Both the position numbers and the translations under genes were made by a program. Under the pieces are notes generated by a model. The model worked only from the letters and a program-made list of their open reading frames with translations, was not told the origin of the DNA and ran no database searches. A stretch of 36,314 nucleotides of DNA from positions 1-36,314 of IMG/VR virus record IMGVR_UViG_3300017708_000104; one strand, 5' to 3'. The DNA comes from a virus. Of the stretch, positions 4,663 through 30,357 are shown piece after piece (within the stretch, counting starts at the first letter, position 1; each line of letters starts with the position of its first letter).

Positions 4663-4670
4663 TATAAATA
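4663..4670 (+). promoter_or_regulatory. T4-type late promoter (gp13 operon)
   Basis: Exact TATAAATA box in the 43-base gap before gp13, 18 bases upstream of its ATG. This is the T4 late promoter consensus read by gp55 with the gp45 clamp; both are encoded in this window. Confidence 0.7.
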
Positions 4671-5666: not shown

Positions 5667-6611
5667 ATGCCAAGATCAGTTTTCTTTTCTCAGGCAGTTA
5701 GATCAGAACAAAATCTTTACGAAGATCTGGTTATAGAAAGCCTAAAAATATTCGGTCAGGATGTATATTACATTCCGCGAACATTAGTGAATAGAGACGA
5801 TGTACTAAATGAAGATCCAGCATCAAGATTCGACGATGCATATTTAATAGAAGCTTACTTAGAAAATGTAGATGGTTTTGAAGGACAAGGTGATTTATAT
5901 TCTAAGTTTGGTTTAGAAATACGAGATGAAGCAACCTTTGTAATTTCTAGAAGACAGTGGGAAAAGATCGTTGGTATATTTTCTAGTGATTTAACAAACC
6001 CAAAACCCCAGGAAGGAGACGTTTTATTCCTTCCAATGACAAACTCTTTCTTTGAAATATCTTTTGTAGAAGATGATTCACCTTTCTATCAGTTATCTAA
6101 TTTACCAGTTTATAGAATGCAATGTTCTTTATTCGAATATTCAGACGAAGACTTCGATACTGGTATAGAAAGTATAGATCAAAAAACAGGTGCATCAGCT
6201 TATCAAGTCACAATGGATTTAGCTATCACAGGTGGTAATCATTTTGAAATTGGTGAAATAGTTCAACAAACTGTTGGGGTAAATGATTCTGGTGTGGATA
6301 TTATTGTTAAAGGTGAAGTTCAGAATAGAACTAAATCATCAGACACAGTATCCCAGATAGGTGTTTCTAATATAGAAGTTACGGGAAGCTCTGGTGTAGC
6401 TAGGGAGTTTATAGTATCAAACTCTGCACCAATGGTAGGTTCAATCAATAGCTATTCTGCTTATGTAACTAAGGTATATGGATTAACAGATACAACTGAA
6501 ACCTTTGATACAGATGGTGCTTCACAAAATGTAGAATTTGAATTAGAAGCTGATGGATTTATTGACTTTAGTGAAACTAATCCATTTGGCGATCCTTCGG
6601 AGACTTATTAA
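5667..6611 (+). CDS. 14: Neck protein gp14-like
   Basis: 314 residues (T4 gp14 is 256). The beginning MPRSVFFSQAVRSEQNLYED and the segment FGQDVYYIPRTLVNRDDVLNED are hallmarks of the gp14 head-completion/neck family, which works with gp13 to finish the neck before tail joining. The C-terminal third holds an extra beta-rich part (GEIVQQTVG, IVKGEVQNRTKSSDT), which explains the added length and is a common extension in marine T4-like phages. It starts 3 bases after gp13 and its stop overlaps the gp15 start (TAATG), so the three genes are translationally linked. Confidence 0.92.
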   Translation: MPRSVFFSQAVRSEQNLYEDLVIESLKIFGQDVYYIPRTLVNRDDVLNEDPASRFDDAYLIEAYLENVDGFEGQGDLYSKFGLEIRDEATFVISRRQWEKIVGIFSSDLTNPKPQEGDVLFLPMTNSFFEISFVEDDSPFYQLSNLPVYRMQCSLFEYSDEDFDTGIESIDQKTGASAYQVTMDLAITGGNHFEIGEIVQQTVGVNDSGVDIIVKGEVQNRTKSSDTVSQIGVSNIEVTGSSGVAREFIVSNSAPMVGSINSYSAYVTKVYGLTDTTETFDTDGASQNVEFELEADGFIDFSETNPFGDPSETY

Positions 6612-8080
6612 TGTTTGGACTTCATTTCTATCACGCAACAATGAGAAAATCAGTAGCAGTGTTTGGTACACTGTTCAATGATATTTCTGTGGTAAGAAAA
6701 GCGAGTGATGGATCTATATTAAATCAGGTACGTGTTCCGTTAGCTTATGGTCCAAAACAAAAATTTCTTTCTAGACTAGATCAGGAAACAGGATTTGATG
6801 CCCCAGTGGGAATTAAATTACCGCGTATGGCTTTTGAAATAACTTCTCTGGATTTAGATGTAGTTCAAAAAGGACAAAAAAGAAACAAGATAGTAGAGAA
6901 TCACGGTTCAGATGTAACTAAAAAGAAAACATTACAGAACTATACAGCATATAATATTGGTATGCAATTAAATATTCTTGCAAAGAACCAAGATGATGGA
7001 TTACAAATTATAGAACAAATACTTCCTTATTTCCAACCAGAATATACATTAACAATTAAACCAGTCACTGGATTTGATTTAAAACAAGATGTTCCAGTTA
7101 TATTAACTGGTGTAGCTATTGATGATCAGTATGAAGGGTCATATGAAGAGAGAAGAGTATTAACTTACACCTTGGATTTTGTTATGAAAATGAAGTTCTA
7201 TGGACCAACTGTAAATCAAGGGGTGATACGAGAAGTTAATCTTGACTTTGAAAATCAACAAACAGGTGAATTTTACGAGGGATTAAACTATACAGTTAGA
7301 CCTTCAGACACTGCAGATAATAAAGTTGTTACGGTATCATATGACGAAAACCAATTTGTAGTTGGTGGAGATCAATTTATATATGATGTAGAAATACAGC
7401 CTCAGTCAGTACAGATTGCAACTGCAAGTTCATCTTCAAGCACAGCGGAAGTACAACTTATTAACACATCATCATTACAAGTTGGACACATAGTAAGTGG
7501 AACAGGTATAAGTGGAACACCTCAGATATCTGCTATCAATTCACCAACTAAGATTACATTAAATACCGCTCAATCAATTGGAAACAACGTAACCTTATCA
7601 TTTACTGCTAATAAGTTTTACATCTTTGCCCAGGTACAACCTACGTTAACCTTATATAGAGGAAACACTTATATATTCCATCATCCAAGCGGACATCCAA
7701 TTAGATTTTCAACTACAAATGATGGAACACATGCTGGTGGTGCAGCATATACAACAGGGGTAGTAACAGATACAACTACTACGACTGCTCAAGTAAATGG
7801 CGCAGTTAATAATAGTACAAGTGTAACATTAACAGCTTCTAATCCAAATATAAAAGTTGGGGATGTAGTTACAGCTACAGGAATTAGTACAACGGTAGCT
7901 GCTATTAATGGACTTAGTTTAACACTATCAGAGGCAAAAACAATTGCAAATGGAACAACCCTGACATTTACAACATCCAGGACATTATTTTCACCAGTAG
8001 AAAATACACCTGAAGATTTATTTTATTATTGTGCAAATCATCCTAAAATGGGTGGACAAGTAATAGTATTAACATCGTAA
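6611..8080 (+). CDS. 15: Tail sheath stabilizer/completion protein gp15-like with cupredoxin-like extension
   Basis: 489 residues against 272 in T4. Residues 1 to about 265 (MFGLHFYHATMRKSVAVFGTL, then LDFVMKMKFYGPT near 190-200) match gp15, which caps the tail sheath and tube end and binds the neck. The extra C-terminus has a GHIVSGTGIS-type repeat (about 265-335), then a cupredoxin-like domain (about 336 to the end). In that domain H362 (GHPIRF), C474, H477 and M480 (YYCANHPKM) occupy the spacing of a type-1 copper site, Cys-x2-His-x2-Met. A second copy of the repeat (about 383-456) is inserted inside the cupredoxin fold. Copper binding is inferred, not shown. The start overlaps the gp14 stop. 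Confidence 0.88.
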   Translation: MFGLHFYHATMRKSVAVFGTLFNDISVVRKASDGSILNQVRVPLAYGPKQKFLSRLDQETGFDAPVGIKLPRMAFEITSLDLDVVQKGQKRNKIVENHGSDVTKKKTLQNYTAYNIGMQLNILAKNQDDGLQIIEQILPYFQPEYTLTIKPVTGFDLKQDVPVILTGVAIDDQYEGSYEERRVLTYTLDFVMKMKFYGPTVNQGVIREVNLDFENQQTGEFYEGLNYTVRPSDTADNKVVTVSYDENQFVVGGDQFIYDVEIQPQSVQIATASSSSSTAEVQLINTSSLQVGHIVSGTGISGTPQISAINSPTKITLNTAQSIGNNVTLSFTANKFYIFAQVQPTLTLYRGNTYIFHHPSGHPIRFSTTNDGTHAGGAAYTTGVVTDTTTTTAQVNGAVNNSTSVTLTASNPNIKVGDVVTATGISTTVAAINGLSLTLSEAKTIANGTTLTFTTSRTLFSPVENTPEDLFYYCANHPKMGGQVIVLTS

Positions 8081-8090
8081 TGGATATATT

Positions 8091-8504
8091 ATGGACAAAA
8101 GAAAAGAACTATCAAAGTCTTTAGAATCACATCTACCTGCAAAGAAAAAAGGAGATATGATTGCTTTTAAAGAAAGACAAGAAATCAAAGACGATTACGA
8201 ACTTGCACGAGCAACCTATAAAGATTTAATTAATACGGGTATGCGCTCGCTAGACGTACTCGCCGAGCTCGCCCGCGAGAGCGAGCACCCACGTGCGTTC
8301 GAGGTTTTAAGTAGAGCTATTAAAGATGTAGCTGATACTACTGACAAACTTATGGAACTACAAAAGAATAAGAAAGCTTTAAATAAAGAAGAAGTAGAAG
8401 AAGAAAAGAAACGATTGGTAACTAATAATAATTTATTTGTAGGAAGTACTGCCGATCTACAAAAGATGATATTAGATAAAGATTTTATTGATGCAGAGGA
8501 TTAA
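8091..8504 (+). CDS. 16: Terminase small subunit gp16-like
   Basis: 137 residues (T4 gp16 is 164), predicted almost entirely helical. The segment DDYELARATYKDLINTGMRSL, followed by ESEHPRAFEVLSRAIKDVADT and a charged coiled helix, matches the central helical hairpin of T4-type small terminase subunits, which form rings, recognise DNA and stimulate the gp17 ATPase. It lies directly before and overlaps gp17. Unusually, bases 8243-8303 inside the gene are GC-rich (43 of 61) and contain inverted repeats, unlike the AT-rich surroundings. No strong ribosome site precedes the ATG; translation may depend on coupling to gp15, 10 bases upstream. Confidence 0.88.
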   Translation: MDKRKELSKSLESHLPAKKKGDMIAFKERQEIKDDYELARATYKDLINTGMRSLDVLAELARESEHPRAFEVLSRAIKDVADTTDKLMELQKNKKALNKEEVEEEKKRLVTNNNLFVGSTADLQKMILDKDFIDAED

Positions 8505-10098
8505 GAATAACGAATTTGGTTATCTAGGTAATCCCAATGTAAAACGGGATGGGGTAGAAACCGAATTTTCGAAAGAAGAGATACGGGAATACATGAAGTG
8601 TATGAAAGATCCTGTATATTTTGCTAAGAAGTATGTAAAAATTATATCTTTGGATGAAGGATTAGTACCATTTAATCTATATCCTTACCAAAAGAAGATG
8701 TTTAAACACTTCAATAACAATAGATTTAGTATAGTATTAGCATGTAGACAAAGTGGAAAAAGTATATCTAGTGTGGTTTATATACTATGGTATGCAGTAT
8801 TTCACCCAGAAAAAACTATAGCTATACTCGCGAACAAAGGTGCGGTAGCCAGAGAAATGTTATCAAGGATTACATTGGCTCTGGAAAACCTGCCTTTCTT
8901 TTTACAGCCAGGGACTAAGGCTTTAAATAAAGGTTCATTAGAGTTTAGTAATAATTCTAAGATATTAGCAGCTGCTACATCAGGCAGTTCTATAAGGGGT
9001 TTATCAATTAACTTATTGTTTCTTGATGAGTTTGCTTTTATTGACGATGATGCTAGATTCTATACATCTACTTATCCGGTAGTATCGGCAGGTAAAGATA
9101 CACAAATTATAATTTGTTCTACAGCAAATGGAATAGGTAATATATACCATAAGCTTTGGGAAGGTGCTTCACAAGGAACAAATGAATTTAAACCTTTTAG
9201 GATAGATTGGTGGGATGTACCAGGAAGAAATAAAAAATGGCAAAAAGAAACTATTGCTAATACTTCTGAATTACAGTTCGAACAAGAGTTTGGTAATACA
9301 TTCCACGGAAGAGGTAATACATTAATAGATGCTAATCATTTGTTAGCACAGAAAAGCGAAGAGCCATTAGAGTATAGAGAGAACATTTGGTTGTATGATA
9401 AACCAATAGAAGGTCATGAATATATAATGGCTGTTGATGTTGCAAAAGGACGTGGACAGGATTATAGTACATTTACTATTATAGATGTAAGTGTAGAACC
9501 TTTTAAACAAGTAGCAGTATTTAGAGATAATAATATATCTCCTATGCTATTACCAGACATTATATACAAGTATGCAGTGATGTTTAATAATGCATATACA
9601 ATTGTAGAAAGTAACGATCAAGGTGCTGTAGTTTGTAATGGATTATATTATGACTTAGAATATGAAAATATGTTTGTAGAATCTTCTGTTAAGTCAAATG
9701 CTATTGGAGCTACAATGACAAGAAGGGTGAAACGTATTGGATGTTCTACTATAAAAGATTTAATTGAACAAAGAAAATTAGAAATAGTAGACGCTAATAC
9801 AATTATTGAGATGAGTACTTTTGTTTCGAAAGGTAAATCATTTATGGCTATAGCACCGAACCATGACGATCTAATGATGAATTTAGTATTGTTTGCGTGG
9901 TTTACTACAACAGATATATTTAGATCTTTAACAGATATTGATATGAAAGATATGTTATATCGTGAAAGATTAGCAGCAATACAAGACGATATGCTTCCTG
10001 TAGGTTTCTTAGGTGAGAAATCTGAAGAGCATAAATATAGTAAAGACGAAGATGGAAACATCTGGTTTGAGGAAGAAACCAAATTTATAAACTGGTAA
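8491..10098 (+). CDS. 17: Terminase large subunit gp17-like (packaging ATPase/nuclease)
   Basis: 535 residues from ATG 8491; a TTG at 8488 is less likely. N-terminal ATPase: Walker A ACRQSGKS at 84-91, Walker B LLFLDEF at 175-181, and coupling motif CSTANG near 209-214. C-terminal RNase H-like nuclease: D316 (MAVDVAKG), E373 (IVESND) and D459/D460 (NHDDL). This is the motor that pumps DNA through the gp20 portal and cuts the concatemer. Slightly shorter than T4 gp17 (610) but all catalytic motifs are present. It overlaps the end of gp16 by 14 bases. Confidence 0.96.
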   Translation: MQRIKNNEFGYLGNPNVKRDGVETEFSKEEIREYMKCMKDPVYFAKKYVKIISLDEGLVPFNLYPYQKKMFKHFNNNRFSIVLACRQSGKSISSVVYILWYAVFHPEKTIAILANKGAVAREMLSRITLALENLPFFLQPGTKALNKGSLEFSNNSKILAAATSGSSIRGLSINLLFLDEFAFIDDDARFYTSTYPVVSAGKDTQIIICSTANGIGNIYHKLWEGASQGTNEFKPFRIDWWDVPGRNKKWQKETIANTSELQFEQEFGNTFHGRGNTLIDANHLLAQKSEEPLEYRENIWLYDKPIEGHEYIMAVDVAKGRGQDYSTFTIIDVSVEPFKQVAVFRDNNISPMLLPDIIYKYAVMFNNAYTIVESNDQGAVVCNGLYYDLEYENMFVESSVKSNAIGATMTRRVKRIGCSTIKDLIEQRKLEIVDANTIIEMSTFVSKGKSFMAIAPNHDDLMMNLVLFAWFTTTDIFRSLTDIDMKDMLYRERLAAIQDDMLPVGFLGEKSEEHKYSKDEDGNIWFEEETKFINW

Positions 10099-10099
10099 T

Positions 10100-11566
10100 A
10101 TGAAATTTAAAGAATATATAAATCCAACACCGACACTTGAATACGAGGATGATCTTGCGGAGAAGGTAGTATTTGAAAAAGACCCTTCCAAGTTACATTG
10201 TATTGTTCTTGGGTTAGGTGATGAAGAAGGAACATTCGCTGATATAGTTGGTAAGATAACTAAAAAGCGTGGAATGAAATTTACATTAATAAATGTAGAA
10301 GAAGCTTATATATCAAACGCGGATGTAGATTTAGGTTCTGTCGTTTTCCAAAATTATGATGGTGAAGATGGTGAAGTAGAAATCAGAAAAGAAAATTCAA
10401 TTGTATTTGTAAGAGCCGGAGCTATACAAACTTTAGTATCACAGTCTCTGGTATCAACATTAGGTACATACGGTTTCTTTATGGTTAATGATTTAGAATC
10501 TATGATGTTATGTGATAACAAAATGTCCAACGTAATTGCCCTAGATCGTAATAATATACCTACACCTAAATCATCTGTTATAACAAATGTTAAATCAATA
10601 GAAAGCGCACATAAAAAGATCGGTGGTAAATTTCCGGTAGTTATTAAAACATTAACTGGTACACAAGGTGTTGGTGTTTCTATAGCAGAGAGTAAACAAT
10701 CATTAGTTTCTGTTTGTCAATCCTTATGGAAATATGAAGCACAGTTATTAATACAGGAATATTTACCTTTAAAATCAGATATAAGAACATTAGTTGTAAA
10801 TGGTAGAATATTAGGATCAGCAGAAAGAGTTAAACAAGACGATAAAGAGTTTAGAAACAACGTACACTTAGGTGCAAAAACTTTACCATATAAACTATCA
10901 GATGAAGAAAAAGAACTCGTTAAACAGTCCGCACGTGCGACTGGCGCACTATATTGCGGTGTTGACCATTGTAAAGTTGGAAAAGATTATTACATATTAG
11001 AGATAAATGGTTCACCAGGTATTCGTTCACATTTTAATGGATATGATTTAGAAGATGGTAAATCTATAGGAAAGATTAACGACCAACAAGTATTAGCTAA
11101 TATAATAGATCATTTTATACACGAATTACATAGGAAACCACTATTTAGAACAGAGTGTGGTTATATAGAAAGAATAACAGTAGAAGGATTAAAACATCCA
11201 ATAAGAGGTAAGTTTGATACTGGAAATGGTACAAATGCTAGTATGTTACATGTCGATAAACTAGAAATAGAAGGCGATACAGCTATATGGGAAAAGAATG
11301 GTAATAAATTTAAATCCGAAATCGTAGATGTATCAATAGCTAGAAGATTACCAACAGTCCAGGAAAAAAGACCCGTTATAGAAATGACTATTAATTTTAA
11401 TAATAAATCATATCCGAACACAAGAATAGCTTTAACTACAACTGATTCGGCTTCAGAAATGTTATTAAATAGGGATTTAATGACTATATTTAAAGTGGCA
11501 GTTAACCCAGATAGGAGGTTTATATTGTCAGACCACGTCGGTAAAGAGGATAGAACCGACACTTAG
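10100..11566 (+). CDS. RimK-like ATP-grasp ligase fused to RimB-like aspartic protease domain
   Basis: 488 residues, starting one base after the gp17 stop. Residues about 30-340 are a RimK-type ATP-grasp ligase: ATP-binding lysine K183 with GTQGVGV (187-193), then SDIRTLVVNG (226-235), FRNNVHLGAK (251-260), GVDH (287-290) and the metal ligands E301 and N303 in EINGSPG. Residues about 350-480 resemble the retropepsin-like RimB (DUF785, often named ATP-dependent zinc protease) family: KFDTGNGTNAS with DTG at 373-375, then KRPVIEMTI, and LLNRDL with a closing NPDRRFIL. RimK adds glutamates to C-termini (ribosomal protein S6 in E. coli). The target here is unknown; position between gp17 and gp18 suggests virion or host-protein modification. 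Confidence 0.85.
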   Translation: MKFKEYINPTPTLEYEDDLAEKVVFEKDPSKLHCIVLGLGDEEGTFADIVGKITKKRGMKFTLINVEEAYISNADVDLGSVVFQNYDGEDGEVEIRKENSIVFVRAGAIQTLVSQSLVSTLGTYGFFMVNDLESMMLCDNKMSNVIALDRNNIPTPKSSVITNVKSIESAHKKIGGKFPVVIKTLTGTQGVGVSIAESKQSLVSVCQSLWKYEAQLLIQEYLPLKSDIRTLVVNGRILGSAERVKQDDKEFRNNVHLGAKTLPYKLSDEEKELVKQSARATGALYCGVDHCKVGKDYYILEINGSPGIRSHFNGYDLEDGKSIGKINDQQVLANIIDHFIHELHRKPLFRTECGYIERITVEGLKHPIRGKFDTGNGTNASMLHVDKLEIEGDTAIWEKNGNKFKSEIVDVSIARRLPTVQEKRPVIEMTINFNNKSYPNTRIALTTTDSASEMLLNRDLMTIFKVAVNPDRRFILSDHVGKEDRTDT

Positions 11567-11578
11567 AATTTCGATAAG

Positions 11579-11586
11579 TATAAATA
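11579..11586 (+). promoter_or_regulatory. T4-type late promoter (gp18)
   Basis: Exact TATAAATA in the 81-base gap before gp18, about 61 bases upstream of the ATG. A long A-rich leader with ribosome site AGAGGA follows. Strong separate expression of the abundant sheath protein is expected. Confidence 0.72.
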
Positions 11587-11647
11587 AACATATTGAATAT
11601 AACCGTATTATGAAACATATTAACTAACTCAAAAAGAGGATAAAGCG

Positions 11648-13339
11648 ATGGCATTTCAAGTATCACCAGGCGTTGAGGTCAAAGAGATCGACGCAACTAG
11701 CGTGATTCCAGCAGTATCTACCAGTATTGGCGGATTTGCCGGATCATTTAACTGGGGTCCAGTCGGCGAAATTAAAACAGTTGGTTCTGAATCAGAACTT
11801 GCTGAACATTTCGGTACACCGGATGACAGTACAGCTAAGTATTTTCTTACAGCCGCGGCATTCTTAAAGTATGGCAACGCGCTGAAGGTTGTTAGGGTAT
11901 TATCAGGGCATGACAATGCTACTGGTGATGGTTCCGGACAACTGATTAAGAATAAAGAAGATTATGATAATAACTATGCTAACGGCTCCCTATCAAAGGG
12001 AGATTGGGTTGCTAAATATCCAGGAGTTCTAGGAAACAGCTTAAAAGTTTCTGTTATATCGCAAGGTATATCAAGCTTTTCAGGCTGGACATATGCAGGA
12101 TCTTTTGATTCAGCACCAGGAACATCTGACTATGCAATCTCAATTGGTAAATCGGGCGCAAACGACGAATTACACGTAGCAGTTATTGATGAAGATGGTT
12201 TACTAACAGGTACTGCAGGTACAGTGTTAGAAACTTTCGCATTCGTATCCCAGGGTTCAGATGCTAAAAAGAGTGATGGAACATCCAACTACTACAAAGA
12301 AGTTATTAATAATAACTCTAAGTGGATTTGGTGGGCTGATCATAACTCAAACTTAGCGGAAGCAGGAAATCTTATTTCCGGCGTACCAGGGGGTTCATTC
12401 ACAACTCACACATCAGCAATGGAAGCTTCATTAGCTGGTGGATCAGACGATAATGCACCAACAGCAGGCGAAATCGCAATAGGTTACGACTTATTCGAAG
12501 ACGCTGAAACAGTTGATGTTAACTTATTGTTTGCATGTCCAGATGCTAACGGCGCAGAGACAATCGCAGAAGACTTAATCTCTATTGCAACAGCAAGAAA
12601 AGATTGTATGGCTTTTGTATCTCCACCGATAGAGGACACAGTAGGAAGTTCAGCTCCAGCAACAGACGTTATGGCGTTTGCAAATGGATTAACTTCTTCA
12701 TCATACGCATCTTGCGATAGTTCAGCATTATACGTATACGACAAATATAACGACGTATATAGATATATTGGTGCAGCAGGACACGTAGCAGGTTTATGTG
12801 CTAATGCTTCAAATGTAGCAGATGCATGGTTCTCACCAGCTGGTGTAAACCGTGGACAGCTATTAGGAGTAACTAAATTAGCATACAATCCTAACAAAGC
12901 AGATAGAGATACATTGTACAAAGGAAGAGTAAATCCACTGGTTTCTTTCCCAGGACAAGGTATGATGTTATTTGGGGATAAAACTCTACTTAGCAAACCA
13001 TCTGCATTCGATAGGATTAACGTTCGTAGATTGTTCATAGCACTAGAGAAAGCAATTTCAACAGCAGCTAAAGCACAATTATTTGAATTCAATGATGAGT
13101 TCACAAGAGCGAATTTCCGCAATATGGTGGAACCGTTCTTAAGAGACGTTAAAGGAAGACGTGGGGTTACAGATTTCCAAGTAATTTGTGACACTACTAA
13201 CAATACAGGCGCAGTTATAGATGGAAATAGATTCGTTGCTGATATCTTTATCAAGCCAGCTAGATCTATTAACTTCATTACACTGAACTTCATAGCAACC
13301 AGAACCGGAGTAGAATTCTCCGAGATAGCTGGATCATAG
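11648..13339 (+). CDS. 18: Contractile tail sheath protein gp18-like
   Basis: 563 residues (T4 gp18 659). The N-terminus VSPGVEVKEIDATSVIPAVS, then GGFAGSFNWGPVGE, is the signature of phage tail sheath subunits. The C-terminal FNDEFTRANFRNMVEPFLRD and VICDTTNN segments are the conserved sheath core that forms the mesh of strands between subunits. It polymerises around the gp19 tube and contracts at infection. It has its own late promoter and a good ribosome site. Codons look somewhat more GC-rich than in the fibre genes, as expected for a highly expressed gene. gp19 follows after 12 bases. Confidence 0.95.
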   Translation: MAFQVSPGVEVKEIDATSVIPAVSTSIGGFAGSFNWGPVGEIKTVGSESELAEHFGTPDDSTAKYFLTAAAFLKYGNALKVVRVLSGHDNATGDGSGQLIKNKEDYDNNYANGSLSKGDWVAKYPGVLGNSLKVSVISQGISSFSGWTYAGSFDSAPGTSDYAISIGKSGANDELHVAVIDEDGLLTGTAGTVLETFAFVSQGSDAKKSDGTSNYYKEVINNNSKWIWWADHNSNLAEAGNLISGVPGGSFTTHTSAMEASLAGGSDDNAPTAGEIAIGYDLFEDAETVDVNLLFACPDANGAETIAEDLISIATARKDCMAFVSPPIEDTVGSSAPATDVMAFANGLTSSSYASCDSSALYVYDKYNDVYRYIGAAGHVAGLCANASNVADAWFSPAGVNRGQLLGVTKLAYNPNKADRDTLYKGRVNPLVSFPGQGMMLFGDKTLLSKPSAFDRINVRRLFIALEKAISTAAKAQLFEFNDEFTRANFRNMVEPFLRDVKGRRGVTDFQVICDTTNNTGAVIDGNRFVADIFIKPARSINFITLNFIATRTGVEFSEIAGS

Positions 13340-13351
13340 GGGGAATAAATC

Positions 13352-13879
13352 ATGGCAATATTAGGCGTAGACGATTTTAAATCTAAACTAGTTGGCGGTG
13401 GTGCTCGTTCTAACTTATTTAAAGTTACAATGAACTTCCCAGGCTATGCAGGTGGTGATGTAGAACTTACATCATTTATGTGTAAAACTGCTCAATTCCC
13501 TGCATCAATTGTAGCACCGATAATGGTACCATTCAGAGGAAGACAACTTCAGATAGCTGGAGATAGAACTTTTGAACCTTGGACTATTACAGTTATTAAT
13601 GATGTTGGTTTTGAAGTACGAAATGCATTTGAAGCATGGAGTAACGGTATTAATTCACACAATGCTAATACAGGATTAAGTAATCCAACAGATTATCAAG
13701 CTGATGCTATTATAGAACAACTTGATAAAGAAGGTAATACTACTAAAACTTACGACTTTAGAGGGCTTTGGCCATCTAACGTAGGAGCAATAGACGTTTC
13801 ATATGAAACTGAAAATGCTATTCAGGAGTTTACTGTTGAGCTACAAGTTCAGTATTGGGAGAGTGGAACCACTTCCTAA
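13352..13879 (+). CDS. 19: Tail tube protein gp19-like
   Basis: 175 residues (T4 gp19 163). Conserved features are the start GVDDFKSKLVGGGARSNLFK, the segment MVPFRGRQLQIAGDRTFEPW with the GDRTF turn, and the end FRGLWPSNVGAIDVSYET with IQEFTVELQVQYWE, all close to the gp19 tail tube family. It forms the hexameric rings of the inner tube inside the gp18 sheath. It lies 12 bases after gp18, with GGGGGAAT acting as ribosome site, so the two are translated from the same late message. A second, more divergent tube-like protein is encoded at 19013. Confidence 0.95.
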   Translation: MAILGVDDFKSKLVGGGARSNLFKVTMNFPGYAGGDVELTSFMCKTAQFPASIVAPIMVPFRGRQLQIAGDRTFEPWTITVINDVGFEVRNAFEAWSNGINSHNANTGLSNPTDYQADAIIEQLDKEGNTTKTYDFRGLWPSNVGAIDVSYETENAIQEFTVELQVQYWESGTTS

Positions 13880-13886
13880 ATAGGTT

Positions 13887-13894
13887 TATAAATA
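13887..13894 (+). promoter_or_regulatory. T4-type late promoter (gp20)
   Basis: Exact TATAAATA between gp19 and gp20. The expected transcription start, about six bases downstream, coincides with the first base of the hairpin at 13901. Confidence 0.7.
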
Positions 13895-13900
13895 TTAGAT

Positions 13901-13936
13901 GAGGGACTTAAAAAGAGCTTTTTAGCTCGGTCCCTC
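13901..13936 (+). other. Nested hairpin at the 5' end of the gp20 leader
   Basis: GAGGGAC (13901-13907) pairs with GTCCCTC (13930-13936). Inside it GAGCT (13915-13919) pairs with AGCTC (13924-13928) around a TTTT loop. There is no U-tract after it and it sits right at the predicted late transcript start, so a 5' stabilising structure is more likely than a terminator for gp19; termination cannot be excluded. Confidence 0.6.
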
Positions 13937-13957
13937 GGATAATATAGGAATATAATT

Positions 13958-15460
13958 ATGGCAGAATTTTTCGGATTCGAAATAAATAGAAAAGGAAAGG
14001 ACAAAGAAGTTCCTAAAGTTTCCTTTGTACCAAATACAGACGAAGACGGCGCTGGTGTTATTACTAGCGGTGGTCATTTTGGTGCATATTTAGATATTGA
14101 TGGCGACAAAGCTAAAAATGAAGTAGATCTTATTATGAAATATCGTGATGTATCAGCTCAACCAGAAGCTGATGCAGCAATAGAAGATATTATTAATGAA
14201 GCAATTGTGGGAGATCACGATGATGTTCCAGTAGATATTGTTTTAGATAAGGTCGAAGCTTCAGATAAGATTAAAAAAATAATAAAAGGCGAGTTTGATA
14301 ATATATTAGAAATGCTTAACTTTAATAGTTATGCACACGATATATTCAGACGTTGGTATGTAGATGGTAGATTACCATATCATATAATAGTTGATGAAGG
14401 TAGCGAAAAGTTAGGTATTAAAGAACTTAGATATATCGATCCAACTAAATTAAGAAAAGTAAAAGAGATAGAAGAAGAGGAAGATCCTAAAACAGGAGCT
14501 AAACTTATTAAGTCTCAAAAAGAATTTTTTATATTCCAAGATAATGCTCTTGGAAAATATAACCAAGGACTAAAAATTAATCCAGACGCTATAGCATATG
14601 CGACATCTGGTATATTAGATAGTTCCAGAAAAAGAATTTTATCATACTTACATAAGGCTATTAAACCAGTCAATCAGTTAAGAATGATGGAAGATTCGTT
14701 GGTCATATACAGAATATCACGTGCCCCAGAACGTAGGATATTTTATATTGATGTTGGTAACTTACCTAAGGGTAAAGCTGAAGAATACCTAAGAGGTATT
14801 ATGAATCAATATAGAAACAAATTGGTATATGACGCTAAGACTGGTGATATAAAAGACGATAAAAAGCATATGAGTATGCTCGAGGACTTTTTCCTGCCGC
14901 GTAGGGAAGGCGGGAGAGGGACCGAGATCACCACGCTACCAGGCGGCGAGAACTTAGGACAAATAGATGATATAATATATTTCCAAAAGAAACTATATAA
15001 ATCATTAAATGTACCTATGAATCGTTTAGAACAAGAAGCTCAGTTTAGCTTAGGAAGAAGCTCTGAGATAACTAGAGACGAAGTTAAATTTAAGAAATTC
15101 GTTGATAGATTAAGAAAAAGATTTTCGGATCTCTTTATACAGTTATTAAAAACACAATTACTGTTAAAGAATATTGTTACTAAAGAAGATTGGGCGGAGT
15201 GGAAAGAATCTATTTCGTTTGATTATATAGAAGATAACTACTTCAGTGAATTAAAACAAGCTGAAATGTATAGAGAAAGGTTCGAAATGTTAAGTTCATT
15301 AGATGAATTTATGGGTACTTTCATATCAAAAGAGTGGGTTCAGAAGAATATTCTACGCTTTAACGATGATGATATTGAAACTATGCAGAAACAAATCGAT
15401 GATGAAGAAGGAAGAGGTGATTTAGATATGCCGGATCCAGATGATCCGAGGTTTGGATAA
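13958..15460 (+). CDS. 20: Portal protein gp20-like
   Basis: 500 residues (T4 gp20 524). Typical features are FGAYLDIDGDKAKNEVDLI near the N-terminus, the EADAAIEDIINEAIV helix, VIYRISRAPERRIFYIDVGN, and the conserved core HMSMLEDFFLPRREGGRGTE with LPGGENLG. The C-terminus is acidic. It forms the dodecameric portal that initiates head assembly, docks the gp16/gp17 motor and later the gp13/gp14 neck. The codons for the FLPRREGGRG core (14893-14950) are GC-rich (41 of 58 bases), in contrast to the rest of the gene. The start at ATG 13958 follows ATAGGAATA. Confidence 0.96.
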   Translation: MAEFFGFEINRKGKDKEVPKVSFVPNTDEDGAGVITSGGHFGAYLDIDGDKAKNEVDLIMKYRDVSAQPEADAAIEDIINEAIVGDHDDVPVDIVLDKVEASDKIKKIIKGEFDNILEMLNFNSYAHDIFRRWYVDGRLPYHIIVDEGSEKLGIKELRYIDPTKLRKVKEIEEEEDPKTGAKLIKSQKEFFIFQDNALGKYNQGLKINPDAIAYATSGILDSSRKRILSYLHKAIKPVNQLRMMEDSLVIYRISRAPERRIFYIDVGNLPKGKAEEYLRGIMNQYRNKLVYDAKTGDIKDDKKHMSMLEDFFLPRREGGRGTEITTLPGGENLGQIDDIIYFQKKLYKSLNVPMNRLEQEAQFSLGRSSEITRDEVKFKKFVDRLRKRFSDLFIQLLKTQLLLKNIVTKEDWAEWKESISFDYIEDNYFSELKQAEMYRERFEMLSSLDEFMGTFISKEWVQKNILRFNDDDIETMQKQIDDEEGRGDLDMPDPDDPRFG

Positions 15461-15697: not shown

Positions 15698-16354
15698 ATG
15701 AAGTTAATTTCAGAGTATAACGATAGTAATATTAAAAATTACATTACCGAAGATAAAAAAGGTAATAAATCACACGTCATTGAGGGCGTGTTTATGCAGG
15801 CCGAGAAAAAGAATAGAAACGGTCGTGTATACGAAAAAAAGATTCTAGAGTCAGCTGTTAACAAATATGTTAAAGAACAGGTGACAACTGGTAGGGCAGT
15901 AGGTGAACTTAATCACCCAGAAGGTCCTACTATTAACCTAGATAAAGTTTCACACAAGATTACGGAACTCAAATGGGAGGGAAATAATGTTGTAGGAAAG
16001 GCATCAATATTGAAAACACCTATGGGACAGATCGTTGAAGGTCTACTCGAGGGTGGAGTCAAGCTTGGTGTATCAAGTCGTGGTATGGGAAGTCTTGTAC
16101 AGAAGAATGGCGCTAGTTACGTGAACGGTGACTTTATGTTATCGACAGTAGATATCGTTCAAGACCCTTCAGCTCCAGAGGCATTTGTCAATGGAATTAT
16201 GGAAGGTAAAGAATGGGTATGGGATAACGGCATTCTGGTAGCACAAGACATTGAATTAATTGAGACTGAAATAAAGACAGCCAGGTCCGCCTCATCTTCG
16301 GATGTTGAGATCAGAGCATTTAAGAATTTCCTCTCGAAACTTGTAAATAAATAA
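15698..16354 (+). CDS. 21: Prohead core protease gp21-like
   Basis: 218 residues (T4 gp21 212). The conserved protease motifs are visible: NGRVYEK near residue 41, ELNHPEGP with catalytic H73, and GVSSRGMGS with the catalytic serine at about 126-127. The ending DIVQDPSAPEAFVNG is also typical. The enzyme is a serine protease of the herpesvirus-assemblin-like fold that cleaves scaffold and capsid proteins after (I/L)xE during prohead maturation. It is placed before scaffold gp22 and capsid gp23, as in T4. The ATG at 15698 has GGAGA upstream. Confidence 0.94.
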   Translation: MKLISEYNDSNIKNYITEDKKGNKSHVIEGVFMQAEKKNRNGRVYEKKILESAVNKYVKEQVTTGRAVGELNHPEGPTINLDKVSHKITELKWEGNNVVGKASILKTPMGQIVEGLLEGGVKLGVSSRGMGSLVQKNGASYVNGDFMLSTVDIVQDPSAPEAFVNGIMEGKEWVWDNGILVAQDIELIETEIKTARSASSSDVEIRAFKNFLSKLVNK

Positions 16355-17582: not shown

Positions 17583-18923
17583 ATGTTTAACGCAGATTCA
17601 CAATTAATGGAAAAATGGAGTCCGGTCTTAGACCACGAAGGTGCTCCTGAAATCCAAGACAGATATAAAAAAGCTGTCACAGCTAGGCTTCTTGAAAACC
17701 AAGAAGTAGCATTACGTGAAGAGCAAGCACAGGCCCAAGGTAACTTTATTTCAGAAGCAGCAGCAGCTAATAACATTGGCTCTGGTTCAGCTCCTAATAA
17801 TATTGGTACTTTCGACCCAGTTCTTATCTCTTTAGTTCGTAGAGCTATGCCTAACCTTATTGCTTATGATATCGCTGGCGTTCAGCCAATGACTGGTCCT
17901 ACAGGACTTATCTTTGCAATGAAATCTAAATACAGTTCACAATCAGGAACTGAAGCATTCTTTAATGAAGCAGATACTGATTTCTCAGGAACTGGTACTC
18001 ATCAGGCTGATCCAACTGGATTAGTTGGCGTAACAGACGCAGATACTGATGGTTCTATCGCAGATACTGCTGACACTGTATCTACTTTCGGTTCTGGACT
18101 TGCTACAAGTGCAGCGGAAAGATTAGGTGTTGGAGAATCAGGTGATGGTTCTTTCGGTGAAATGGCTTTCACAATCGAGAAAGCTACTGTAACTGCTAAG
18201 TCAAGAGCTTTAAAAGCTGAGTACACAATGGAACTTGCTCAAGACCTTAAAGCTATCCACGGTTTAGATGCAGAAGGCGAATTAGCTAACATCCTATCAG
18301 CTGAGATCCTAGCGGAAATCAACAGAGAAGTTGTTAGATCAGTTCTTAAAACTGCTAAAATCGGTGCTTTACAAGCTTCAACAGCCGTATCCGGTATCTT
18401 CGACATGACATCAGACTCAGACGGAAGATGGATGGTTGAGAAGTTCAAAGGTCTTATCATGCAACTCGAAAGAGAAGCTAACGTAATTGCTAAAGAAACA
18501 AGACGTGGCAAAGGTAACTTTGTACTTTGTTCTTCAGACGTAGCTTCAGCTTTAGCAGCTGCTGGCATGTTAGACTACACTCCTGCTTTAAGTGCAAACT
18601 TAAACGTTGATGATACTGGTAATACATTTGCTGGTGTTCTTAACGGCAGAATGAAAGTCTACATTGACCCGTATGCTACTGGCGACTTCGCATGTGTAGG
18701 TTACAGAGGTTCAAATCCATATGACGCAGGACTATTCTATTGTCCATACGTTCCTTTAACTATGGTTAAAGCAGTTGGTGAGAATGACTTCCAACCAAGA
18801 ATGGGATTCAAAACAAGGTACGGCATGATTGCTAATCCTTTCGTAGCTATTGACGGAACTATCGGTGCAGATAGATCTAACCAATACTTCAGAATCTTCA
18901 GAATTGACGACATAATGAACTAA
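17583..18923 (+). CDS. 23: Major capsid protein gp23-like
   Basis: 446 residues (T4 gp23 521). The N-terminus LMEKWSPVLDHEGAPEIQD, then LIAYDIAGVQPMTGPTGLIF, SKYSS, YTMELAQDLKAIHGLDAE and the end MIANPFVAIDGTIGADRSNQ are clear gp23 signatures. A gp21 cleavage site, GNFISE before AAAANN, is present at about E58. It forms the hexamers of the head shell. Ribosome site AGGGGAA lies upstream. Transcription probably comes from the upstream late promoter at 15482. A strong terminator follows, isolating this highly expressed gene from the next. No separate vertex gene gp24 is seen in the window. Confidence 0.97.
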   Translation: MFNADSQLMEKWSPVLDHEGAPEIQDRYKKAVTARLLENQEVALREEQAQAQGNFISEAAAANNIGSGSAPNNIGTFDPVLISLVRRAMPNLIAYDIAGVQPMTGPTGLIFAMKSKYSSQSGTEAFFNEADTDFSGTGTHQADPTGLVGVTDADTDGSIADTADTVSTFGSGLATSAAERLGVGESGDGSFGEMAFTIEKATVTAKSRALKAEYTMELAQDLKAIHGLDAEGELANILSAEILAEINREVVRSVLKTAKIGALQASTAVSGIFDMTSDSDGRWMVEKFKGLIMQLEREANVIAKETRRGKGNFVLCSSDVASALAAAGMLDYTPALSANLNVDDTGNTFAGVLNGRMKVYIDPYATGDFACVGYRGSNPYDAGLFYCPYVPLTMVKAVGENDFQPRMGFKTRYGMIANPFVAIDGTIGADRSNQYFRIFRIDDIMN

Positions 18924-19612: not shown

Positions 19613-20059
19613 ATGAATAATCTTGAAACAATCTTAGAAATGTGGAAAAAAGATAGTGACATCGATGAAATGAATCTCGATGAATCATCTAGAGCCACAG
19701 CAAAATTACATTCCAAATACCTAGAACTATACACTATTAATAAACTTAAACTAAAGAAATTAGATCTTGAGTTAAAGGTTATATTAAGAGATAAGTTCAA
19801 TCACTATAATGGTAAACTATCACAGGAAGAAATGGATTCTAAAGGATGGGATTACGATCCACTAAATGGATTAACTGTATTAAAAGGTGATATGGATAAA
19901 TATTATGACGCTGATCCAGTCATACAAGAACACCAAACAAAAATGGCTTACACTGAAGAAATGGTAGCTGCATTAAAAGAAATATTAGAAAGTATTAAAT
20001 GGAGACATCAGACAGTTAAGAATATGATAGAATGGAGAAAGTTCACTAGTGGTATATAA
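19613..20059 (+). CDS. uvsY: Recombination mediator UvsY-like
   Basis: 148 residues (T4 UvsY 137). Conserved features are the N-terminal LEMWKKDSDID, LHSKYLELYTINKLKLKKLD, the YNGKLSQEEM segment, VLKGDMDKYYDAD, and the C-terminal helix SIKWRHQTVKNMIEWRKF. UvsY loads the UvsX recombinase onto gp32-covered single-stranded DNA. It heads a recombination operon with uvsW further on. The promoter P1 lies so close that the mRNA likely starts at the AUG; there is no Shine-Dalgarno. The GTG start of the next gene overlaps the end. Confidence 0.9.
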   Translation: MNNLETILEMWKKDSDIDEMNLDESSRATAKLHSKYLELYTINKLKLKKLDLELKVILRDKFNHYNGKLSQEEMDSKGWDYDPLNGLTVLKGDMDKYYDADPVIQEHQTKMAYTEEMVAALKEILESIKWRHQTVKNMIEWRKFTSGI

Positions 20060-20942
20060 ATTTCATCAGTACAAATTCGATAACATGAATAGATATTATG
20101 ATGTTATTCGTGAGGCTATGAATCAATTAGGGCATAGCGAAGTTGTTGAACATAATGAAGCTGATATAAATTTCTATAACCACATACAAACTTTTAATAA
20201 TAGTCAAATTATAGTTAAACCAACTGCACCTACATCTAAACACTTTGCATTAGATTTACATGGATATGCTAATACATCTGAAATGGCATATGAAGATCCT
20301 TATGTATATGAATATATGTATTCCCATTTAAATCCAAAGAACGATATGGATTGGAGTATTATAACTGATTTAATAGAAAAGAAATCTAACAAGTGGGATG
20401 ATTCTATATTACTTAAATGGAGAAATGCAAAGAATATTGCTAATGACCATATTCTAATTATAGGTCAGGTTCCAACAGATGAAACGGTAAACGGGTTTGG
20501 TTTTGGCGATCATTTTCAAAGACTGAGAATGATAGTAGATAGTTTAAAAGATGAAAACATTATAGTTAAGTTACATCCTTCTATGAAAATAAAAGGTAAG
20601 ACTAAAGATATAATTGATAGGTGGATCCAAAATGGTATTGATGTTAGAACTGATTTTGAATCTATACATGATTTCTTACCTTACACCAAATGTGCGATTA
20701 TCGATAATAGTACTGCAGGAATAGAATGTCTAATGCATGAAGTTCCTATTATATCATATGGATGGCCAGAATATCACTGGGTTACAGCTAAAGCCCAAAC
20801 ATTACCCCATATAAAATCATTAATTAGTGATTTACGTTGGCACGAAAAAAGAAGGGCTAAACAGTTTATATATTGGTACATAAATGATTATCTTTGTACA
20901 GATATAGATAGTACTGTAAATAGATTAAAAGAACTTATATAA
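20049..20942 (+). CDS. Capsule-type glycosyltransferase-like protein (KpsS/KpsC-like)
   Basis: 297 residues from GTG 20049; an ATG at 20085 is an alternative start. The C-terminal half has IVKLHPSMKIKGK, DFLPYTKCAIIDNSTAGIEC and HEVPIISYGWPEYHW. This is the HP and NSTxGIE...PVI..G..Y pattern of bacterial capsule synthesis proteins of the KpsS/KpsC (beta-Kdo transferase) type with a GT-B fold. It would transfer a sugar from a nucleotide donor; the acceptor is unknown (host surface, phage protein or DNA). It is wedged between uvsY and uvsW, overlapping both, so it is expressed with recombination genes. Family assignment is from motifs only. Confidence 0.6.
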   Translation: MVYKFHQYKFDNMNRYYDVIREAMNQLGHSEVVEHNEADINFYNHIQTFNNSQIIVKPTAPTSKHFALDLHGYANTSEMAYEDPYVYEYMYSHLNPKNDMDWSIITDLIEKKSNKWDDSILLKWRNAKNIANDHILIIGQVPTDETVNGFGFGDHFQRLRMIVDSLKDENIIVKLHPSMKIKGKTKDIIDRWIQNGIDVRTDFESIHDFLPYTKCAIIDNSTAGIECLMHEVPIISYGWPEYHWVTAKAQTLPHIKSLISDLRWHEKRRAKQFIYWYINDYLCTDIDSTVNRLKELI

Positions 20943-29181: not shown

Positions 29182-30357
29182 ATGAAAGAAATGAGAATAT
29201 CAACACAAAGGATCTTAGCAGAAATCTCTACTAAGTTCCCAGGTCAAACGGATTTCCGTAGGGCCATAATCGAAGACGTGGCAAAGTCCATGGGCTTCAC
29301 CGCTAAGGATTATTATCCTTTACTTAAACCAGAAAACAGAGTTAAGATTGGTACTTACTCTTTAGATGGTTTACTTCCTGAACCAGCAGAACAAGCTCCG
29401 GCAGCTACGGATAAAATCCCAGCTACTGCGGCTCAAATGCAATCTATTGTTAGCGATGAAAGATCATACGCAACAGTAGATCCTACATTCGTTCCATGGG
29501 GTTCTTTCAAAGACATTACACAGATTATTAAATCTGGAATGTTTTATCCTACATACGTTTCTGGTTTATCTGGAAATGGTAAAACATTTATGATTGAGCA
29601 AGCATGTGCTAAAATTGGTAAAGAATTCATTAGAGTTCAAATCAACCCTGAAACAGATGAGGATGATTTACTTGGTGGATTTAGATTGATTAACGGCGAA
29701 ACAGTCTTTGCTAAAGGCCCAGTTCTAAAAGCTATGGAAAATGGCGCAATACTTCTACTCGATGAAATCGATAGAGCTACTAACAAGATTATGTGTCTTC
29801 AAGGTATCTTAGAAGGTAAGCCAGTCCTAGTTAAAAAGACCGGTGAAACAATTACACCTAAAAAAGGTTTCAACGTATTCGCAACAGCGAACACTAAAGG
29901 TAAAGGTTCCGATGATGGAAGATTTACAGCAGCTTCTATTATCGATGAAGCTTTCCTAGAAAGATTTACTATCTCAGTGGATCAGCAATTCCCTTCCGCT
30001 GCTATTGAAAAGAAAATCCTTTCTAAGCATATGGATAAATTCGATGTTCAAGATGATGAGTTTGTACAAAAGCTTGTTACTTGGGCAGATATAATTAGAA
30101 AAACATTTTATGATGATGGCGTAGATGAAGTTATCTCAACTAGAAGGCTTTGCCACGTAGTTCAAACTTTCTCTATCTTCAAAGATAAAATGAAATCAAT
30201 CGACCTATGTATTTCAAGGTTCGATGATGATACAAAACTAGCATTCTTGGATCTATACACGAAAGTAGATTCAGGTGCTCAACTAGATTATGGCCAACCT
30301 GAGAATGAGGTCGATCTAGAAGACTTAGCAAACGAGGAATATAATGACAAAATCTAA
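29182..30357 (+). CDS. MoxR/CobS-like AAA+ ATPase
   Basis: 391 residues. After a 100-residue N-terminal part comes an AAA+ core: Walker A GLSGNGKT (128-135), TDEDDLLGGFRL (158-169), Walker B AILLLDEID (189-197), sensor FATANTKGKG, and an arginine-finger region FLERFTI. The TDEDDLLGG insert is characteristic of the MoxR/CobS branch. In cyanophages the homologue is usually labelled cobS (cobaltochelatase subunit), but a general MoxR role as chaperone motor working on the adjacent VWA protein fits this context better. It has its own promoter P4 and overlaps the next gene by 14 bases. Confidence 0.9.
   Translation: MKEMRISTQRILAEISTKFPGQTDFRRAIIEDVAKSMGFTAKDYYPLLKPENRVKIGTYSLDGLLPEPAEQAPAATDKIPATAAQMQSIVSDERSYATVDPTFVPWGSFKDITQIIKSGMFYPTYVSGLSGNGKTFMIEQACAKIGKEFIRVQINPETDEDDLLGGFRLINGETVFAKGPVLKAMENGAILLLDEIDRATNKIMCLQGILEGKPVLVKKTGETITPKKGFNVFATANTKGKGSDDGRFTAASIIDEAFLERFTISVDQQFPSAAIEKKILSKHMDKFDVQDDEFVQKLVTWADIIRKTFYDDGVDEVISTRRLCHVVQTFSIFKDKMKSIDLCISRFDDDTKLAFLDLYTKVDSGAQLDYGQPENEVDLEDLANEEYNDKI

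What the first reader, a model, noticed from the sequence alone, without database searches (positions are those of the whole stretch)
10100..11566. RimK-type ATP-grasp ligase fused to a RimB-type aspartic protease inside the tail operon
Seen: one ORF carries the full RimK motif set (K183, GTQGVGV, DIR, FRNNVHLGA, EINGSPG) and a C-terminal DTG-containing domain that follows the RimB/DUF785 pattern. Known: RimK adds glutamates to the C-terminus of ribosomal protein S6, and rimB is often a neighbour of rimK in bacteria. Inference: the phage carries a single-chain writer-and-trimmer for poly-amino-acid tails, placed between terminase and sheath under the late neck-operon promoter. Targets could be host S6 (translation shift) or a virion protein. 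A fused form in a phage structural operon would be a distinct post-translational modification system.
Basis: partly seen in the sequence, partly recalled or inferred. Interest (0 to 1): 0.82.

Follow-up and report, generated by a model that had tools for sequence, protein, structure and literature searches.

The report
Phage RimK–RimB fusion, probably virion-packaged
A marine T4-like phage carries one enzyme that looks able both to add and to trim glutamate tails on proteins, and many of its relatives begin with the same address tag that T4 uses to load proteins into its head for injection, so it may rewrite host proteins from the first moment of infection.

Summary
Window 10100-11566 encodes 488 aa: a complete RimK-type ATP-grasp ligase (best fold match: E. 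coli RimK solved with ribosomal protein S6, 5zk6) joined to a C-terminal RimB/DUF785 retropepsin (best fold match: DUF785 structure 2pma, then RloA). Catalytic residues are conserved throughout, and both domains are under purifying selection.

It is not a lone oddity. Hundreds of viral contigs carry relatives. Two conserved slots dominate the sampled loci: gp17-X-gp18 and regA-X-gp43. Among close gp17 relatives, 49 of 76 have a RimK-type gene after gp17 and 27 go straight to gp18. Isolated phages Mosig and YerA41 carry it too. A bacterial RimB-RimK hybrid is published, in the opposite domain order; the phage fusions form a separate clade.

Strict matches are 116/189 in the family versus 9/1815 other ORFs (7/20 versus 5/450 after clustering, p=6e-8). 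The YerA41 homologue was found in virions by mass spectrometry.

Best reading: an internal head protein, co-injected with DNA, that polyglutamylates and trims host protein(s). The target is unknown. The window's own copy keeps only the targeting half of the tag.

The parts
4663..4670 (+). TATAAATA late-promoter-like box upstream of the gp13-gp14-gp15-gp16-gp17-RimK/RimB run
   Evidence: Exact match 19 bases before the gp13 start at 4689; TATAAATA is not over-represented in the window as a whole (11 found, 7.5 expected), so only its intergenic position supports function.
8488..10098 (+). gp17, large terminase subunit (upstream neighbour)
   Evidence: Pfam Terminase_6N/6C and PHROG terminase large subunit.
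10100..11566 (+). RimK-RimB fusion protein, 488 aa
10100..10162 (+). N-terminal peptide, residues 1-21 (MKFKEYINPTPTLEYEDDLAE): degenerate capsid-targeting-sequence-like stretch, F3-x-x-Y6-I7 kept, the cleavage Glu replaced; a possible L-A-E site at residues 19-21
   Evidence: Family comparison with T4 IPIII/IPII; low AlphaFold confidence at residues 1-24.
10190..11134 (+). RimK-type ligase, residues 31-345 (pre-ATP-grasp plus ATP-grasp domains); K141, K183, GTQGVGV 187-193, R229, R243, FRNN 251-254, D289, E301, N303
   Evidence: PF08443; PDB 7qys/5zct by profile; Foldseek 5zk6, TM 0.83 on the target; residue conservation.
11147..11533 (+). RimB/DUF785-type retropepsin domain, residues 350-478
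   Evidence: PF05618, PDB 9g59/9g58/2pma, Foldseek 2pma and RloA.
11210..11224 (+). K371-F-D373-T-G375: catalytic DTG and the Lys equivalent to RloA K46; with R424 (11369-11371) equivalent to RloA R114, poly-Glu-contacting residues
   Evidence: K371, D373, G375, N376 and R424 invariant in 28/28; alignment to 9g58/9g59; RloA residues from PMC12239564.
11579..11586 (+). TATAAATA late-promoter-like box for gp18, downstream of the fusion gene
11648..13339 (+). gp18, tail sheath (downstream neighbour)
   Evidence: Pfam and PHROG tail sheath.
15698..16354 (+). gp21 prohead protease, the enzyme expected to cut capsid-targeting sequences; its own N-terminus contains KNYITE
   Evidence: PHROG 207; translation.
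17583..18923 (+). gp23 major capsid protein; predicted maturation site NFISE58|A59 has the same [FY]-I-x-E form as the family's N-terminal tags
   Evidence: PHROG 138; translation.

Best explanation
The gene encodes a two-domain enzyme: a RimK-type ATP-grasp ligase that adds glutamates one by one to the C-terminus of a protein (or makes free poly-glutamate), fused to a RimB-type retropepsin that works as a dimer, cuts such tails and may stimulate the ligase. In this phage family the protein is, at least ancestrally, an internal head protein. It is made late, enters the prohead core through an N-terminal T4-type capsid-targeting peptide, is trimmed there by the gp21 protease, and is ejected into the next host with the DNA. 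There it changes one or more host proteins before phage genes are expressed, as T4 Alt does to RNA polymerase. Shown by computation: both domains, intact catalytic and poly-Glu-contacting residues, purifying selection, conserved position, and enrichment of the targeting peptide. Inferred: activity, glutamate as the amino acid, packaging, injection, and the target.
For: Ligase: PF08443 E=1.6e-36; profile match to RimK structures at 4e-40; AlphaFold model best matches RimK-RpsF 5zk6, TM 0.83; catalytic residues invariant in 35/35. Protease; K371 and R424, equivalent to RloA K46 and R114 that contact poly-Glu, invariant in 28/28, and the R137 position is K or R in 22/28 (PMC12239564). Selection: dN/dS about 0.05-0.15 in both domains. 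Packaging: T4 IPIII and IPII begin MKTYQEFIAEA; IPIII residues 4 and 7 direct targeting and 8 and 10 direct processing (PMC9026906). Family N-termini match in that register: MEKFNSFITEK, MERFNEFLIEK, MERFTKFLTEA. Strict motif in 116/189 family members against 9/1815 other ORFs of the same contigs; clustered at 70% identity 7/20 against 5/450, Fisher p=5.6e-8, shuffle mean 0.03 of 20. In Mosig it is the only strict hit among 191 ORFs. The motif persists in both gene positions although those proteins are only about 28% identical. The window phage's own gp23 maturation site, NFISE|A, has the same form. YerA41 g112, a RimK-RimB homologue, is phage-particle-associated by LC-MS/MS (PMC7354516). Late-type position with gp13-gp18.
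Against: The window's own N-terminus (MKFKEYINP...) lacks the cleavage Glu at the expected place, and so do several other clusters (13/20 fail the strict motif), so packaging is weakest for this very copy. YerA41 has no T4-type tag, and its virion list also holds many non-structural proteins, so contamination is possible. In the regA-gp43 position the gene is not in a structural block. Other enzymes in these genomes also bear the tag, so the tag alone does not prove injection of every bearer. A bacterial RimBK hybrid had protease activity but no detected S6 glutamylation (PMC11957791). The S6 sequences read from two marine genomes do not end in Glu, though these are not known hosts.
Confidence: 0.5

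Rival explanations
1. The protein is not packaged. It is a host-takeover enzyme made during infection that adds and trims glutamates on host S6 or another translation protein to shift translation towards phage mRNAs.
For: Closest characterised relatives modify S6 (RimK) and trim it (RimB) (PMC11957791, PMC7343187); best fold match is RimK bound to RpsF. Mosig-type copies sit between regA (a translation repressor) and gp43, not in a head block. The YerA41 copy is middle-expressed (PMC7354516). The window copy has a degenerate tag.
Against: Does not explain the strong enrichment of the T4-type tag, nor the stable location with gp13-gp18. S6-specific model score 84 against a cut-off of 331. S6 of two marine genomes does not end in Glu.
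Confidence: 0.25
2. The enzyme acts inside or on the prohead: the ligase glutamylates a phage structural protein, or the retropepsin helps digest the Glu-rich scaffold gp22 as a second maturation protease.
For: The tag would place it in the prohead core next to gp22; the gp22 of this window is very Glu-rich with runs of E; RimB can cut internal poly-Glu (PMC11957791).
Against: 27 of 76 close gp17 relatives have gp17 directly followed by gp18, with no RimK-type gene in that slot (those short loci could carry one elsewhere). Some relatives in the slot keep the ligase but have lost the DTG domain, so a protease-first role does not fit. RloA needs about eight consecutive Glu and did not cut a genome-encoded acidic stretch (PMC12239564). 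Ligation needs ATP, which is unlikely in a sealed head.
Confidence: 0.13
3. A RimK-like ligase with another acceptor or amino acid (a small molecule, cofactor or peptide, as in CofF, MptN, LysX or glutathione synthase), and a protease domain of unrelated specificity.
For: TIGR00768 RimK-family score 136.4 is just below its cut-off of 143.4, and MptN, LysX and CofF models also score. GenBank calls the Mosig copy 'putative glutathione synthetase'.
Against: RimK itself is by far the best solved relative by profile (4e-40 against 1e-20 for the next kinds) and by fold. Joining to a poly-Glu-type retropepsin with conserved basic contact residues points to a poly-Glu chemistry.
Confidence: 0.12

Closest known systems
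Bacterial RimBK hybrid (Desulfotalea psychrophila; Little et al. 2025, PMC11957791)
   Same: Same two domain families in one chain; protease domain with DTG.
   Different: RimB is N-terminal there and C-terminal here. The phage fusions form a clade apart from bacterial RimK and from the RimBK proteins sampled here (97/90 support; several deep branches long), so probably an independent fusion. No capsid-targeting peptide in the bacterial form.
RimK / RimB of Pseudomonas and E. coli
   Same: ATP-grasp ligase fold and catalytic residues; retropepsin fold, DTG and basic poly-Glu-contacting residues.
   Different: Separate genes, chromosomal, about 22-24% identity over the ligase; target S6 known there, unknown here.
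T4 internal proteins IPI-III and Alt
   Same: N-terminal targeting peptide with the same register and the same kind of gp21 cleavage site; late head-gene setting; Alt is an injected protein-modifying enzyme.
   Different: Alt is an ADP-ribosyltransferase and the IPs are small defence inhibitors; none is a RimK-type ligase or retropepsin.
RimK-type genes of cyanophages and Methylophilales phage Melnitz
   Same: Phage-borne RimK-type ligases; Melnitz has a matching N-terminus (MTQKFSQFITEE).
   Different: No retropepsin domain; cyanophage copies fall on a separate branch.
Pelagibacter phage Mosig_00005 and Yersinia phage YerA41_066
   Same: Same RimK-then-RimB order; the YerA41 protein is phage-particle-associated.
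   Different: About 26-28% identity; different gene positions; annotated only as putative glutathione synthetase and structural protein.

Membership tests
RimK-type ATP-grasp ligase (PF08443) | Profile match over the ATP-grasp domain above the curated cut-off | tested here: met
   126.1 bits against a cut-off of 21.
RimK-type ATP-grasp ligase (PF08443) | Catalytic and nucleotide-binding residues intact, whole fold present | tested here: met
   K141, K183, D289, E301, N303 and others invariant in 35/35; Foldseek TM 0.83 to 5zk6.
NCBIfam RimK family alpha-L-glutamate ligase (TIGR00768) | Score above the curated cut-off | tested here: not met
   136.4 against 143.4, marginally below; so called RimK-type, not a strict member.
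Ribosomal protein S6-glutamate ligase (PRK10446, E. coli RimK equivalog) | Score above the equivalog cut-off | tested here: not met
   84.2 against 331.
Ribosomal protein S6-glutamate ligase (PRK10446, E. coli RimK equivalog) | Adds Glu to S6 | not testable with these tools
   Needs enzymology or mass spectrometry.
RimB / DUF785 retropepsin (PF05618) | Profile match above the curated cut-off of 27 bits | tested here: inconclusive
   Window domain 26.1 bits (E=9e-6), just below; 26/28 family members match at E<=0.1, best 6.6e-11.
RimB / DUF785 retropepsin (PF05618) | Retropepsin fold with catalytic D-T/S-G | tested here: met
   Foldseek 2pma, RloA, Ddi1, HIV protease; DTG/DSG in 188/188.
RimB / DUF785 retropepsin (PF05618) | Basic residues that contact poly-Glu (RloA K46, R114, R137) | tested here: inconclusive
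   First two invariant (K371, R424); the third is K/R in 22/28 but T in the window.
T4-type internal (capsid-targeted) protein | N-terminal targeting peptide: aromatics at positions 4 and 7, aliphatic at 8, Glu at 10 | tested here: met
   For the family: 116/189 strict against 9/1815 other ORFs. See the next row for the window copy.
T4-type internal (capsid-targeted) protein | The same peptide in the window's own copy | tested here: inconclusive
   F3-x-x-Y6-I7 kept, but the Glu is replaced by P9-T10 (MKFKEYINPT); a possible L-A-E site lies at 19-21.
T4-type internal (capsid-targeted) protein | Present in the virion and processed by gp21 | not testable with these tools
   Only indirect: the YerA41 homologue is listed as phage-particle-associated (PMC7354516).

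The most novel reading that the evidence does not exclude
Marine T4-like phages package a single-chain poly-glutamate writer and trimmer in the head by a T4-type targeting peptide and inject it with their DNA, so that host proteins are reversibly polyglutamylated before any phage gene is expressed: an Alt-like strategy with a different chemistry, found in hundreds of viral contigs.
Probability: 0.42. Interest if true: 0.82.

Novelty: new variant of a known kind. Interest (0 to 1): 0.64.

Why it matters
If true, it adds a third known type of covalent host takeover delivered from a T4-like head, beside ADP-ribosylation by Alt and DNA-defence inhibitors such as IPI. It would give a function to a gene carried by many uncultured ocean phages, and show that the capsid-targeting peptide is a general cargo tag in marine T4-like phages, readable from sequence. 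The RimK-RimB pair is known in bacteria as a dynamic ribosome-modification switch; a phage-delivered version makes the role of polyglutamylation in infection directly testable in cultured systems such as Mosig on Pelagibacter HTCC1062.

Tried and rejected
Idea that the fusion is a unique event in this window: rejected. Idea that the C-terminal domain only looks like retropepsin: rejected. Idea that the phage took a bacterial RimBK hybrid: disfavoured, because the domain order is reversed and the ligase trees separate (long branches, so not proven). A DNA-level or tblastn search with the C-terminal domain alone gave nothing in named phages, so relatives were reached through the full protein and profiles. 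A first, simpler N-terminal motif count gave 1 hit in Mosig and none in the window and led to the stricter, start-codon-aware test. S6 as the target was probed through S6 sequences of three genomes; their C-termini do not end in Glu, but none is a known host, so this says little. Gut-contig relatives filed under Firmicutes (L118, L120, L121, L123) carry phage-type neighbours and are probably phage contigs, not evidence for a cellular RimK-RimB order. No paper found describes RimK-RimB in a phage head or a RimK with a capsid-targeting peptide; the library is open-access only.

Full report
What is there. Window 10100-11566 (+) is one 488-aa ORF whose ATG lies one base after the gp17 stop. The window is a 36.3-kb virus record, 35% G+C, with T4 gene order gp13, gp14, gp15, gp16, gp17, the fusion gene, gp18, gp19, gp20, gp21, gp22, gp23. 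A TATAAATA box, the T4-type late promoter core, lies 19 bases before gp13 (4663) and another between the fusion gene and gp18 (11579). The motif itself is not over-represented in the window (11 against 7.5 expected), so only the intergenic positions speak for it. The gene is thus the last of the neck/packaging run, not part of the tail operon proper.

The ligase. PF08443 matches at 1.6e-36. A profile of 35 family members matches solved RimK proteins at 4e-40. The AlphaFold model (pLDDT 81.5) matches E. coli RimK in complex with ribosomal protein S6 (5zk6) first, TM 0.83 on the target. K141, K183, G187, G190, G192, R229, R243, F251, R252, N254, D289, E301 and N303 are invariant in 35/35. NCBI's RimK-family model scores 136.4, just below its cut-off of 143.4, and its S6-ligase model far below (84 against 331). 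It is therefore RimK-type by fold and motifs, but membership of the S6-specific family is not met.

The protease. Residues 350-478 match PF05618 (26 bits alone, cut-off 27); 26/28 family members match it. A family profile finds the RimB-like structures 9g59, 9g58 (RloA proteins) and 2pma (DUF785), and the model of the domain (pLDDT 83) matches 2pma, RloA2, RloA, then Ddi1 and retroviral proteases. D-T/S-G is in 188/188. RloA contacts poly-Glu through K46, R114 and R137, and R114 and R137 are needed most (PMC12239564). By alignment with 9g58 (my residue mapping, based on the matching spacing to the catalytic Asp) K46 is K371 and R114 is R424, both invariant; R137 is K or R in 22/28 but T in the window. 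Both domains evolve under purifying selection, dN/dS about 0.05-0.15.

How widespread. Named phages: Mosig (Pelagibacter), vB_Yru_GN1 and YerA41 (Yersinia ruckeri) have the same RimK-then-RimB order; Melnitz and cyanophages have RimK-type ligases without the protease. In the first set of sampled loci the gene lies between gp17 and gp18 in 77 and between regA and gp43 in 74, counting only loci where both flanks are visible. Starting instead from gp17, 49 of 76 informative close relatives have a RimK-type gene next and 27 have gp18 directly, about 80 bases away. In 13 of the 49 the best match is the Mosig type; among the complete ones most keep only a remnant of the protease without DTG, and three are RimK alone. 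So the slot is optional, and the ligase is the part that is always kept.

Relation to the bacterial hybrid. Little et al. [quoted passage not shown] the Desulfotalea protein cut polyglutamylated S6, but no S6 glutamylation was seen. In the ATP-grasp tree the phage proteins other than the cyanophage RimKs form one group (97/90) apart from bacterial RimK and RimBK. Several branches are long, so the deep joins are unsure. A separate, reversed fusion is the simplest reading.

The N-terminal tag. In front of the ligase fold the family has a short, otherwise variable peptide. In many members it reads MEKFNSFITEK, MERFNEFLIEK, MERFTKFLTEA, MEKFKSFITEA or MQVSKFKDYITEA. T4 internal proteins IPIII and IPII begin MKTYQEFIAEA. 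The first ten residues of IPIII suffice for packaging; residues 4 and 7 matter for targeting and 8 and 10 for cleavage by gp21 (PMC9026906). The phage peptides have aromatics at 4 and 7, an aliphatic at 8 and Glu at 10 (or the same shifted by one to three residues). The window phage's own gp23 carries a predicted maturation site of that form, NFISE|A, and its gp21 begins with a stretch containing KNYITE.

Is that more than chance? With all ATG/GTG/TTG starts allowed equally, the strict motif is in 116/189 family members and 9/1815 other ORFs of the same contigs. After clustering at 70% identity it is 7/20 against 5/450 (Fisher p=5.6e-8); shuffling the N-termini gives a mean of 0.03 of 20. The clusters remain related by descent, so p is indicative only. 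In the complete Mosig genome the fusion protein is the only hit among 191 ORFs. Two of the five other hits are small basic proteins encoded between gp20 and gp21, where T4 has its prohead-core genes 67 and 68 (the T4 comparison of position is from my own knowledge). In four longer contigs with the fusion gene, other tag-bearing proteins include a DUF6267 protein and a cytidylyltransferase-like protein, so the tag may mark a set of head cargo.

Limits. The window's own copy starts MKFKEYINPTPTLEYEDDLAEK: the aromatic/aliphatic half is kept (F3, Y6, I7), the Glu is not; a possible L-A-E site lies at 19-21. Close relatives are similar (MKFKDYIDP, MQNFNEWQ). Packaging is therefore best supported for the family, less for this member. 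The only experimental hint is that the YerA41 homologue (g112, 'ribosomal protein modification protein') is marked phage-particle-associated by LC-MS/MS (PMC7354516). I equate g112 with YerA41_066 from its annotation and its place near the ribonucleotide reductase genes; that phage lacks a T4-type tag and its list includes many enzymes.

How it most likely works. Shown by computation: the two domains, conserved active sites, selection, position, and tag enrichment. Inferred: late synthesis, entry into the prohead core by the tag, trimming by gp21, ejection with DNA, then ATP-dependent glutamylation of a host protein with the protease domain (as a dimer) trimming tails or stimulating the ligase as RimB does. 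S6 is the obvious candidate but is not shown; S6 of three genomes examined does not end in Glu, and none is a known host. I put the domain assignment at about 0.95, poly-Glu chemistry at about 0.75, packaging in the family at about 0.65, and the full injected-modifier mechanism at about 0.5.

Verdict. The fusion as such is known in bacteria (other order) and common in phages. The new part is the likely capsid-targeting of a glutamate writer/trimmer, which I found in no paper searched (open-access library only).

Noticed in passing
L380 (G005) 10582-12033 and 12884-14119: Two large proteins in another marine T4-like contig begin with perfect T4-type capsid-targeting peptides (MKGFNTFITEAS..., MKSYNQYLAEAD...); the second is DUF6267 and has a KWDGAPA ligase-like motif. 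Candidate packaged enzymes of unknown function.
   Followed up: partly
L386 (G007) 9818-11113; L095 516-1436: Cytidylyltransferase-like proteins (FGRFNPPTxGH) with N-termini MIKSFSQYVDEA / MIKSFTRYLTEA, again like a capsid-targeting peptide.
   Followed up: partly
L054 12874-13365; L063 11217-11699: Small basic proteins between gp20 and gp21 with the same tag (MQTFKGYINEQ, METFKSFLNEQ), in the place of T4 prohead-core genes 67/68; no Pfam match for the one scanned (L063).
   Followed up: partly
L310 5023-6285, L319, L312, L311, L313, L314, L320, L322: RimK-type genes after gp17 in which the retropepsin domain has decayed to a short remnant without DTG; an apparent stepwise loss of the trimmer while the ligase is kept.
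   Followed up: partly
L118, L121 (contigs of about 400 kb filed under Firmicutes): RimK-RimB fusions of about 550 aa with N-termini like MRTFDEFLKNH and phage-type neighbours (thymidylate synthase, dNMP kinase, Ig-like structural protein); probably jumbo-phage contigs binned into bacterial MAGs.
   Followed up: partly
window 20049-20942: 297-aa ORF between uvsY and uvsW without any PHROG match but matching Pfam Capsule_synth (PF05159), a glycosyltransferase-like enzyme in a phage replication/recombination block.
   Followed up: no
window 26847-29075 and 29182-30357: A 742-aa 'peptidase' family protein without a Pfam match next to a MoxR/CobS-like AAA ATPase; a conserved but functionally obscure pair in T4-like marine phages.
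   Followed up: no
window 6611-8080: gp15 tail-sheath stabiliser (residues 5-238) extended by about 250 residues of repeat-like, cupredoxin-like sequence absent from the Pfam gp15 domain.
   Followed up: no
L115 / L101: The same phage contig appears in a GTDB genome labelled Candidatus Pacearchaeota (NZDU01000031) and in IMG/VR; probably mis-binned phage DNA.
   Followed up: no
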